DNA of 64,000 nt. Origin: Prorocentrum cordatum (taxonomy: Eukaryota > Sar > Dinophyceae > Prorocentrales > Prorocentraceae). Location: positions 358,178 through 422,177 of the forward strand of contig CAUYUJ010016160.1 of the NCBI GenBank assembly GCA_963575745.1, read 5' to 3'. This document shows, piece by piece, positions 60,859 through 62,788 of this stretch. The notes below the pieces were generated by a model. It had not been told where the DNA came from. It searched no databases and worked only from the letters and a program-made list of their open reading frames with translations. Position 1 is the first letter of the stretch. Every line of letters starts with the position of its first letter. Position numbers and translations under genes: made by a program.

Positions 60859-60874
60859 ACGAGTTCGAGAGGGG

Positions 60875-60896
60875 TCCGTAGCCATTTTGGCTCAAG
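60875..60896 (+). other. Relict dinoflagellate spliced leader
   Basis: An exact 22-nt DinoSL: TCCGTAG, then CCATTTTGGCTCAAG. It is followed by TCCGCAGCTG and not a GT donor, so it is the 5' end of a copied mRNA and not a leader RNA gene. Its internal TAG could serve as acceptor if the locus is transcribed. Confidence 0.95.
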
Positions 60897-60926
60897 TCCG
60901 CAGCTGCGCTGGCTCCATACGAAGCG

Positions 60927-62405
60927 ATGAAAGAAGTCGCGTTATCGGAGGTCGGAAGTCACAACACGGCTGGTGACTTCTGGACAGTGATACATGGCGC
61001 CGTTTACGACATGTCCCGCTTTGCGCCATTTCATCCTGGCGGCCCGATTATCATGTTGGCTGCAGGGACTGACTGCACAGTGATGTTCGAGCAGTACCAT
61101 CTGCGCAGCCAGGCAGCCTTAGACAAAGTCGCAGGCTGCAAGGTCGCCGCTCTCAAGGGCAAGTCTCCCGCCATGGGCCCCATGTTCATTGAGCTCCAAC
61201 GTCGCGTTGCAGAAAGACTGAGCGGAGAACCAAAGCGGCCTCGCAGCGTGCAAGTTTTGTTCCTTCTGGATGTGATAGCAGCTGTGCTTGCGCTGTGCTG
61301 GTCAGTCCGTGCAAGTGCTACCACACCGACTTGGCAACTTCTTTCAGCTCCACTCGCCATTCAGCTCCTGTTATTGCGACTATTCGGACAGGCGCATGCC
61401 CTCGGCCACATGCAGATCTGGCCCGCACCGACAGTGACATTTTGGCGACGCTTGCTGACAGCGATTGGGAGTCCTGGCATCGGCCTGGCGACGGTCCCGG
61501 AGTCCAGCGAAAACCCGCGCAAGATGCTGAACGAAGCGCACGTTGCGGCGCAGTTCGAGTTCCCAGATGGGCGTGGACCGTGCGAGCACCAGTCCGTTCA
61601 CCACGTTCGCGGTGCCGAGCTTGAGCACGACCAGTGCTACAAGGTCTGTTCAATGGGCGGGCTGTTGAGGATCGGCGGGCGCCAGACCTACCTGACGGTG
61701 AACACATTCCAGCGTTTTCGATGGTACCGGATTTTGGCTGGCGTGTTTTCGGATTGCATGTTGCTTGCCGTGGCCGTCATCGAGCGCGTCGCCTTTCTCT
61801 CGCACTCTTGGGTACCGCAAGCCCATTGGGTCGAGATCGGGGTTTGCACGTTGGGGATTCTCGCGTCATGCGCGTTTCTCAGGGCATCCTTGCTGCTGTT
61901 CGCGAAAGGCAAGGGAGGAGTGTGCTGCTTCGCATGCGCGCAGTTTCTCAAGCAGCACCTTGTTGCATCCAATGCCGAGCTTTTTTTCGCACAGCACGTG
62001 TGGGACCGCGAAGTTGGCGAAGAAGAGGTGAACCAGGATTGGGGCAAGCACAACGCTGAGACGTCGGTGTCTCTGAGGGGCATGGAGAGCCATCCCGCGT
62101 GCTGGGGAATGCCGTGGATGGCAGGAGCCAATCCGTCAACTCTGACGTATCATCTCGAACACACGTTGTTCCCTGGCGTGGCCTATGCGAACTTGCCCAA
62201 GATCGCAAGGATCGTGGAGACCACTTGCGCCGAGTTCGGCGTCGGGTGCGACGTGCTGGTCGGCGGATCGAAGTTGCGTCGGAGATGGACGACTAAGCTC
62301 ACCCACTACGCCACTGATCAGACGAAGGCTGTGGGCATTTCGAGTATTGTAGACGCCGCTCGAGGGTTGTTTCAATGTGTGTTTTGTCTGCTCACAGGCA
62401 GGTGA
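60927..62405 (+). CDS. Cytochrome b5-fused fatty acid desaturase-like protein
   Basis: 492 residues from the first ATG after the leader to TGA, no intron. Residues 1-75 form a cytochrome b5 domain with HPGG (36-39) and His58 as probable haem ligands. Hydrophobic segments (about 107-128, 137-153, 268-288 and 303-325) and histidine boxes follow: HALGH (157-161), HQSVHH (221-226) and YHLEHTLFP (408-416). This layout is that of front-end desaturases, which insert a double bond in membrane-bound acyl chains using b5-supplied electrons. The third box normally reads [QH]xxHH; here Thr413 replaces the last His. Activity is therefore uncertain. The open frame, kept since retroposition, suggests a young or functional copy. 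Confidence 0.8.
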   Translation: MKEVALSEVGSHNTAGDFWTVIHGAVYDMSRFAPFHPGGPIIMLAAGTDCTVMFEQYHLRSQAALDKVAGCKVAALKGKSPAMGPMFIELQRRVAERLSGEPKRPRSVQVLFLLDVIAAVLALCWSVRASATTPTWQLLSAPLAIQLLLLRLFGQAHALGHMQIWPAPTVTFWRRLLTAIGSPGIGLATVPESSENPRKMLNEAHVAAQFEFPDGRGPCEHQSVHHVRGAELEHDQCYKVCSMGGLLRIGGRQTYLTVNTFQRFRWYRILAGVFSDCMLLAVAVIERVAFLSHSWVPQAHWVEIGVCTLGILASCAFLRASLLLFAKGKGGVCCFACAQFLKQHLVASNAELFFAQHVWDREVGEEEVNQDWGKHNAETSVSLRGMESHPACWGMPWMAGANPSTLTYHLEHTLFPGVAYANLPKIARIVETTCAEFGVGCDVLVGGSKLRRRWTTKLTHYATDQTKAVGISSIVDAARGLFQCVFCLLTGR

Positions 62406-62770
62406 CAGAAGTCGCGTCTGGCGAATTCAGTGTCATCGCTGGCGTCGCTCAATCTACTTGGTGTTGTTTTCTCTACCTTGTTGTGTTGTGTATGTCCCAT
62501 ACGCTGCGTCTAGTTATGTACCCTCTGGCCTGCTCCTTCCCTTCTTTCAAACAGTGCCTTGGCGGTGCGAGCATCTAATATTGCCAACCGTTGGAAGACC
62601 GCGCGGAATCAGCCATGCGGCTGCGACGGCCCTTCTAATCGTGATGTTGGCGCGCTCCTCAGTCAGGTAGCGCCGCAGCCAAAGGGCTGTGAAGCCAAAC
62701 AATGGTCTATGACGCCTGATCGTCCTAACATTTTCCGAAATATATAGTTTTTTTTTTTTTTAAAAAAAAA
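62406..62770 (+). other. 3'UTR and A tail of the desaturase retrogene
   Basis: 342 nt of T-rich sequence after the stop end in T14 (62748-62761) followed by A9 (62762-62770). The A run abuts the downstream direct repeat. No AATAAA signal is seen, consistent with dinoflagellate genes. Confidence 0.75.
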
Positions 62771-62788
62771 CGAGTTCGAGAGGGGTCC

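What the first reader, a model, noticed from the sequence alone, without database searches (positions are those of the whole stretch)
60859..62788. Full-length trans-spliced mRNA reinserted in the genome with target-site duplication
Seen: a 19-bp direct repeat ACGAGTTCGAGAGGGGTCC on both sides, an exact 22-nt spliced leader at the 5' end, an intronless 492-codon ORF, and an A run at the 3' junction. Known: dinoflagellate genomes contain genes recycled from spliced-leader mRNAs. Such complete loci with both leader and target duplication intact should be uncommon. Because the ORF is undamaged the event should be recent, and the leader's own TAG offers a ready trans-splice acceptor.
Basis: partly seen in the sequence, partly recalled or inferred. 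Interest (0 to 1): 0.85.

Follow-up and report, generated by a model that had tools for sequence, protein, structure and literature searches.

The report
Desaturase mRNA copied back into genome
In a dinoflagellate alga, a complete messenger RNA for a fat-modifying enzyme was copied back into the chromosome, and the scars it left, together with its source gene and a second sister copy, point to a LINE-type jumping-gene machinery as the copier.

Summary
Confirmed. At 60,859-62,788 an intronless Cyt-b5/desaturase ORF (492 codons) starts with the exact 22-nt dinoflagellate spliced leader (SL), ends in T14-A8, and is bracketed by an exact 19-bp direct repeat. The genome (probably Prorocentrum cordatum, by inference) holds five near-identical copies. 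Three share upstream DNA without SL, ending in AG exactly where the SL is joined here: the parental arrangement. A fourth is an independent SL copy with its own 19-21 bp duplication and A8 tail. Long duplications plus A tails indicate target-primed reverse transcription, not the LTR integration favoured by a 2018 review. Full SLs are not rare: 14,218 exact 21-mers. In a non-random sample, 14 of 20 sit upstream of LINE-like coding sequence, some with ATG directly after the SL; such LINEs are the likely engine. Against: 23 of 27 SL sites tested lack a visible duplication plus A run. The ORF is intact, but its five private codon changes all alter amino acids, so function is doubtful. The parental mRNA start resembles a decayed SL (14 of 22). 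The T14 is unexplained.

The parts
60859..60877 (+). Left copy of 19-bp target-site duplication (last 3 bases TCC shared with the SL)
   Evidence: Exact match to 62770-62788, only two copies in window
60875..60896 (+). Complete 22-nt dinoflagellate spliced leader TCCGTAGCCATTTTGGCTCAAG
   Evidence: Sequence; consensus DCCGTAGCCATTTTGGCTCAAG quoted in PMC6050394 and PMC7245778
60897..60918 (+). Putative decayed older SL at the start of the parental mRNA (14 of 22 identical, no gap)
   Evidence: 14/22 at offset 0, the best in a 500-nt scan (next best 13 at +147); 59 of 393,738 background positions score 14-16 (48 scoring 17 or more, mostly real SLs, set aside)
60897..60926 (+). 5' untranslated region; begins exactly after the AG of the parental-type copies (...GACTGCCGAGTAG|TCCGCAG)
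60927..62405 (+). Intronless 492-codon ORF: N-terminal cytochrome b5 domain plus fatty acid desaturase domain
   Evidence: 22 homologues, 99 to 30% identical
62406..62747 (+). 3' untranslated region, collinear with copy C16104 up to ...GAAATATATAG apart from single-base differences and a 4-bp insertion
62748..62761 (+). T14 run; copy C16104 has a single T here, so 13 T are extra and unexplained
62762..62769 (+). A8 run at 3' junction (read as retroposed poly(A) tail; C16104 DNA also has A7 here)
62770..62788 (+). Right copy of 19-bp target-site duplication

Best explanation
The locus is a young processed retrogene of an intronless desaturase gene. Shown by sequence: the parental-type copies (C16104, C18044, C18424) have shared upstream DNA ending in AG exactly where the SL is joined in the window copy; the window copy has the SL instead, the same transcribed body, an A tail and a 19-bp duplication of a different site; a sister copy (C13777) repeats this elsewhere with a 19-21 bp duplication. 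Inferred: the parental pre-mRNA was SL trans-spliced and polyadenylated, and a non-LTR (LINE) endonuclease/reverse transcriptase nicked the target, primed on the A tail, copied the RNA to its 5' end, and joined the cDNA to the other strand, here helped by a shared TCC. The likely supplier is the host's own SL-headed LINEs, which carry the same leader at their 5' ends, so their own RNAs are probably also trans-spliced before copying. The copy lacks the parental upstream DNA and appears to be drifting, though still open.
For: Exact SL, 19-bp repeat, A8, intronless ORF. Own-genome search: five full-length near-identical copies, no near-identical exon pieces of an intron-containing parent among the 27 matches listed. 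Three SL-free copies share upstream DNA with AG at the SL junction; window and C13777 have unrelated upstream DNA with full SL. C13777: repeat AAGTGCTAGAAGTCGCTGCAA (first AA ambiguous with A run) flanking SL and A8. Two further SL sites with the same anatomy: L038, a LINE-like element, 15 bp + A8, and L033, a WD40-repeat ORF, 17 bp + A6C. Test positive at 4 of 27 distinct SL sites against 9 of 94,342 control positions (binomial p 1.5e-12; only indicative, because window and C13777 were chosen and control hits may be neighbours). Of four SL-headed ORFs used as queries, L037, L043 and L041 have APE-type endonuclease and RT domains above cut-off; 14 of 20 SL sites have same-strand tblastn hits to these ORFs (four being the ORFs themselves). 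L037 matches R2 and LINE-1 ORF2p in PDB.
Against: 23 of 27 SL sites tested show no repeat-plus-A-run signature. Many lie in microsatellites where it cannot be seen, but L025, L028, L029 and the second SL in this window (34138) lie in ordinary sequence and lack it too (4 kb searched for the three; up to 20 kb for the last). The T14 before A8 is not explained by simple priming on a poly(A) tail, and C16104 DNA has A7 at that place, so part of the A run could be encoded. The SL-headed LINEs L037 and L049 end without an A tail, so which family acted is open. L042, whose ORF is the only query that L038 matches, has RT and APE matches below Pfam cut-off and only a weak PDB match to exodeoxyribonuclease III (E 0.004); a frame of L038 itself had no Pfam hit. 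No RNA, reads or empty allele were seen.
Confidence: 0.88

Rival explanations
1. The cDNA was made by an LTR (Ty1/copia) reverse transcriptase and inserted by its integrase, the route the 2018 review favours.
For: PMC6050394 argues that Ty1/copia is highly expressed in dinoflagellates and favours it (parts 1-2 of 3 read).
Against: Duplications of 15, 17, 19 and 19-21 bp with A runs at the 3' junction. Integrases make 4-6 bp duplications (recalled knowledge). SL-headed elements here encode APE and RT.
Confidence: 0.05
2. cDNA was captured during repair of a staggered double-strand break, with no endonuclease of a retroelement involved.
For: Left junction has a 3-bp TCC overlap between target and SL, as in end joining; L033 shares CC.
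Against: Full-length copies to the SL, A tail placed at the right duplication, and long duplications recurring at four sites fit TPRT better. C13777 shows no such overlap.
Confidence: 0.05
3. The window copy is the parental gene and the SL is part of its native promoter; the repeat is chance.
For: Its ORF is intact, and a promoter role for genomic SL has been proposed (PMC6050394).
Against: Three relatives share SL-free upstream DNA ending in AG at the junction; the SL copies have unrelated flanks. The repeat abuts both ends.
Confidence: 0.02

Closest known systems
DinoSL retrogenes (mRNA recycling; Slamovits and Keeling 2008, not read, known to me through PMC6050394, PMC12014239, PMC7245778)
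   Same: Genomic SL at the 5' end of an intronless gene copy; multiple rounds leave tandem SL relicts.
   Different: Here parental-type copies, the acceptor position, a sister insertion and target-site duplications are in hand; the passages I read identify retrogenes by the SL and leave the enzyme open.
LINE-1-mediated processed pseudogenes of mammals (recalled)
   Same: Target-site duplication around 15-20 bp, 3' A tail, intronless cDNA of a cellular mRNA, reverse transcriptase supplied in trans.
   Different: The copies retain the complete mRNA 5' end, a trans-spliced leader that may serve as a new splice acceptor; no TTTT/AA nick motif is evident at the four targets; T14 precedes the A run.
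Trypanosomatid ingi/L1Tc LINEs (search listing with starts of abstracts)
   Same: Non-LTR elements in organisms with SL trans-splicing.
   Different: Those share a 77-nt Pr77 promoter and give unspliced transcripts according to the abstract of PMC8190864; here the leader itself is the 5' end of the element.

Membership tests
DinoSL retrogene | Complete or relict 22-nt SL in genomic DNA at the mRNA 5' end | tested here: met
   60875-60896 exact
DinoSL retrogene | Parental-type copy without that SL, with AG at the SL junction | tested here: met
   C16104, C18044, C18424 ...GAGTAG|TCCGCAG
DinoSL retrogene | Introns of the parent lost | tested here: inconclusive
   All five copies are intronless over the CDS, so there is no loss to see
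DinoSL retrogene | Transcribed, with a new SL joined to the relict | not testable with these tools
   No transcripts available; P0001 from JGI has the C16104 residue, not the window's, at all six differing residues
LINE/TPRT insertion | Target-site duplication well above integrase length | tested here: met
   19 bp here; 19-21, 17 and 15 bp at three other SL sites
LINE/TPRT insertion | A tail at 3' junction next to the right duplication | tested here: met
   A8 here; A8, A6C, A8 elsewhere
LINE/TPRT insertion | L1-like nick motif (TTTT/AA on the nicked strand; recalled) | tested here: not met
   Left junctions read CCCCAAG|ACGAG, AAGTC|AAGTGC, CCCAAG|AAGTCC, CGGC|GGTCCC; this argues against L1 specificity, not against TPRT
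LINE/TPRT insertion | Coding-competent LINEs in the same genome | tested here: met
   L037 one open frame of 1,868 codons with PF03372 and PF00078; activity not tested
LTR integrase insertion | 4-6 bp duplication (recalled) | tested here: not met
   19 bp
Fatty acid desaturase with cytochrome b5 domain | Pfam domains above curated cut-off | tested here: met
   PF00173 62.4 bits (cut-off 23.7), PF00487 36.5 bits (cut-off 29.7)

The most novel reading that the evidence does not exclude
In this dinoflagellate, LINEs use spliced-leader trans-splicing as part of their life cycle: their RNA gets the SL as its 5' end (for some the whole 5' UTR, ATG directly after it), the full SL is copied into the new insertion, and the SL, often set down inside TCC or AGG microsatellites that could act as pyrimidine tract or AG supply, serves as the next acceptor. 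The leader is thus a renewable 5' end, tandem SL relicts count rounds of transposition, and the same enzymes copy host mRNAs such as this desaturase, driving the retrogene load of dinoflagellate genomes.
Probability: 0.55. Interest if true: 0.82.

Novelty: new variant of a known kind. Interest (0 to 1): 0.62.

Why it matters
Dinoflagellate mRNA recycling has been known since 2008, but the 2018 review states that it is unknown which retroelement type does it and leans to LTR elements (PMC6050394); the 2025 survey names both kinds (passages of PMC12014239). Here are traced insertions (parental-type copies, acceptor position, two daughters, duplications), and a class of SL-headed LINEs, that make the question directly testable by a genome-wide count. 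It also bears on how these genomes grew: in Symbiodiniaceae and Polarella LINEs were described as likely remnants of an ancient expansion (passages of PMC8045281), whereas here L037 keeps an APE-RT frame of 1,868 codons and L051 one of at least 2,497, each behind a perfect SL.

Tried and rejected
Rejected: LTR-integrase insertion (duplications too long); chance repeat; SL as native promoter of a parental gene. An intron-containing parent was not found: the 21 rows outside the five copies are at most 47% identical over short stretches, the longest 31% over about 210 residues; only the best candidates were scored (87 of 112).

Led nowhere: SL pattern in viral contigs and genome contigs gave 3 contigs: a likely chimaeric MAG contig (L002), one SL followed by GTACG as in an SL RNA gene (L003), and a short contig with two SLs (L001). 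Pfam on 20 large window ORFs gave no family. No duplication found for the second SL in the window, nor for L014, L015 and L027 with 1.5 kb downstream. Six of the 30 sampled SL sites (L004, L026, L027, L030, L031, L032) were not put through the duplication test. Song et al. 2017 is not held. A first duplication control was swamped by the window's tandem repeats, so the stricter test replaced it. Genome-wide counts of SL+ATG (eight requests), SL+relict (two), SL+GTA (one), the empty-site search (three) and a 3' UTR search (one) did not complete.

Full report
What is there. The described anatomy is exact. The SL TCCGTAGCCATTTTGGCTCAAG lies at 60875-60896, a 492-codon ORF at 60927-62405, and ACGAGTTCGAGAGGGGTCC at 60859-60877 and 62770-62788. 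The repeat occurs only at these two places in 64 kb even at 3 mismatches (expected 0.05). The 3' end reads ...GAAATATATAG-T14-A8-repeat. The ORF has cytochrome b5 and fatty acid desaturase domains.

Which genome. The genome search places the window at G000:C15311:358178-422177 of a 4.128-Gb assembly in 21,875 contigs; contig C1 is 3,562,531 bases, and the window is 61.1% GC. P. cordatum CCMP1329 has a 4.15-Gb assembly with longest scaffold 3.56 Mb and 59.7% GC (passages of PMC10666404). The identification is inference.

Parent and sister. A protein search of the genome gave 27 matches, of which six rows are the window copy and four relatives on C16104, C13777, C18044 and C18424, 98-100% identical over the whole length (C18424 in two pieces with a frame break near residue 170, C13777 with one stop). 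The other 21 rows are at most 47% identical over parts; 87 of 112 candidates were scored. No intron-containing parent was found. I fetched all four relatives with about 0.3 kb upstream and 0.6 kb downstream. C16104, C18044 and C18424 share upstream DNA without an SL that ends ...GACTGCCGAGTAG, and from the next base (TCCGCAG) all five are collinear through the ORF, apart from a 2-bp deletion in C18424. The window copy and C13777 have instead ...GGCTCAAG of the SL, each after unrelated DNA. This is what trans-splicing at that AG, followed by reinsertion, predicts. C16104 alone is collinear with the window to the end of the 3' UTR; C18044, C18424 and C13777 diverge earlier.

Second insertion. 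With 2.5 kb more, the C13777 copy proved to be flanked by its own repeat, AAGTGCTAGAAGTCGCTGCAA, whose first AA is ambiguous with the A8 run before the right copy; the left copy directly abuts the full 22-nt SL. So both SL-headed desaturase copies found carry duplications of about 19-21 bp and an A8 tail at different targets.

How general. Of 30 SL sites taken in listing order (contigs C1-C3, so not random), 15 follow TCC-rich and 7 AGG-rich sequence, against 914 of 18,278 background 29-mers of the window. Genome-wide, 1,993 SLs are directly preceded by TCCTCC in register, of 14,218 exact 21-mers. Not all need be insertions: 2 of the 30 are followed by GT, the donor dinucleotide of an SL RNA gene, and the genome-wide count of that did not complete. 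Seven of 30 have ATG directly after the SL, five a 15-nt and two a 22-nt relict after it by a fixed threshold. Of 20 sites with 7.5 kb downstream, 14 have a same-strand tblastn hit to four ORFs from the same set (four are the ORFs themselves, L046 is weak); L034, L036, L040, L044, L048 and L052 do not (the main hits in L040 lie upstream of its SL). Ten open frames were scanned with Pfam: L037, L043 and L041 have APE and RT domains above cut-off, L042 both below cut-off, L051 RNase H (RT below cut-off), L039 RT, L045 APE; L034, L050 and L038 had none. L037 matches R2 and LINE-1 ORF2p in PDB; L042 only exodeoxyribonuclease III weakly.

Duplication test. I asked for an exact repeat of at least 15 bp ending at the SL start, with an A run at the right copy. 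4 of 27 distinct SL sites pass (window 60876, C13777, L038, L033; 28 rows, one site listed twice) against 9 of 94,342 control positions. L033 is followed by a 368-codon WD40-repeat ORF, with a 17-bp repeat and A6C 1.3 kb downstream. Two of the four were examined because of this finding, downstream lengths differ between sites, and control hits may be adjacent positions; the p value of 1.5e-12 is therefore only indicative. Sites in ordinary sequence without the signature: L025, L028, L029 (4 kb searched) and 34139 in this window.

Age and constraint. Over 1,509 core columns the window copy differs from the others at 9-14 positions. Its five private codon changes (codons 280, 329, 480, 484, 487) are all amino-acid changing; C13777's one private change is a stop; private changes of the three parental-type copies are 3 amino-acid changing and 6 silent, one frame break left out (classified by eye; Fisher p 0.017, or 0.028 without the stop; changes shared by two copies dropped; test chosen after seeing the data). 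A JGI protein, P0001 (410 residues), has the C16104 residue at all six places where it differs from the window copy. I saw no evidence of expression for the window copy.

An older round. The parental mRNA start TCCGCAGCTGCGCTGGCTCCAT matches the SL at 14 of 22 without gaps at exactly the junction; 59 of 393,738 background positions score 14-16, and the next best place within 250 nt either side scores 13. If real, the parent is itself an old retrogene whose acceptor lies just upstream of its decayed leader, which would explain the lack of introns. LINE-like L050 shows the same arrangement less decayed (18 of 22; L053 13 of 22).

Unexplained. C16104 reads ATATATAGTAAAAAAAGAGC; the window copy ATATATAG-T14-A8. 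Thirteen extra T could come from a U-tailed mRNA, from non-templated addition during reverse transcription, or from an assembly error.

Literature. PMC6050394 (parts 1-2 of 3 read) states the retroelement type is unknown and favours LTR; PMC12014239 (outline and passages) names both kinds; PMC10235124 (passages) proposes LINEs for RNA-virus insertions; PMC8045281 (passages) treats LINEs of Suessiales as likely old remnants. In the listings and in what I read, I saw no description of target-site duplications at DinoSL retrogenes or of SL-headed LINEs. That is weak evidence of absence: I read two parts of one paper and passages of eight others, several listings were cut (20 of 117, 20 of 29, 15 of 147, 12 of 103), the one paper holding 'target site duplication' with the other terms (PMC7789003) was seen only in passages, and most subscription journals are not held.

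Noticed in passing
window 34138-34174: Second exact 22-nt SL followed directly by a 15-nt relict CCATTGTGGCTCAAG: a gene recycled at least twice. Downstream frames 34252-34848 and 34757-35668 overlap, suggesting a frame break; neither had a Pfam hit.
   Followed up: partly
window 24606-26316 (+): LINE reverse transcriptase remnant (tblastn to the L042 ORF; PF00078 in 25153-26316), without an SL nearby.
   Followed up: partly
L037:1507-7110, L049, L039, L051: LINE-like elements whose ATG directly follows the SL, so the SL could be the whole 5' UTR; L037 and L049 end in CAAGGTTACGTTCG before (TCC)n, with no A tail.
   Followed up: partly
L021/L050, L024/L053: Intact SL followed by a degenerate full-length 22-nt SL (not the usual 15-nt relict), implying an acceptor upstream of the older SL.
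   Followed up: partly
L001:2746-2913: IMG/VR contig with two full SLs 147 bp apart on the minus strand, followed by GCGA and GCCT; possibly a dinoflagellate contig.
   Followed up: no
window, whole: CCAAGA is strand-biased (123 on + against 24 on -); the desaturase target and that of L033 lie in this CCCAAGAGG-type sequence.
   Followed up: no
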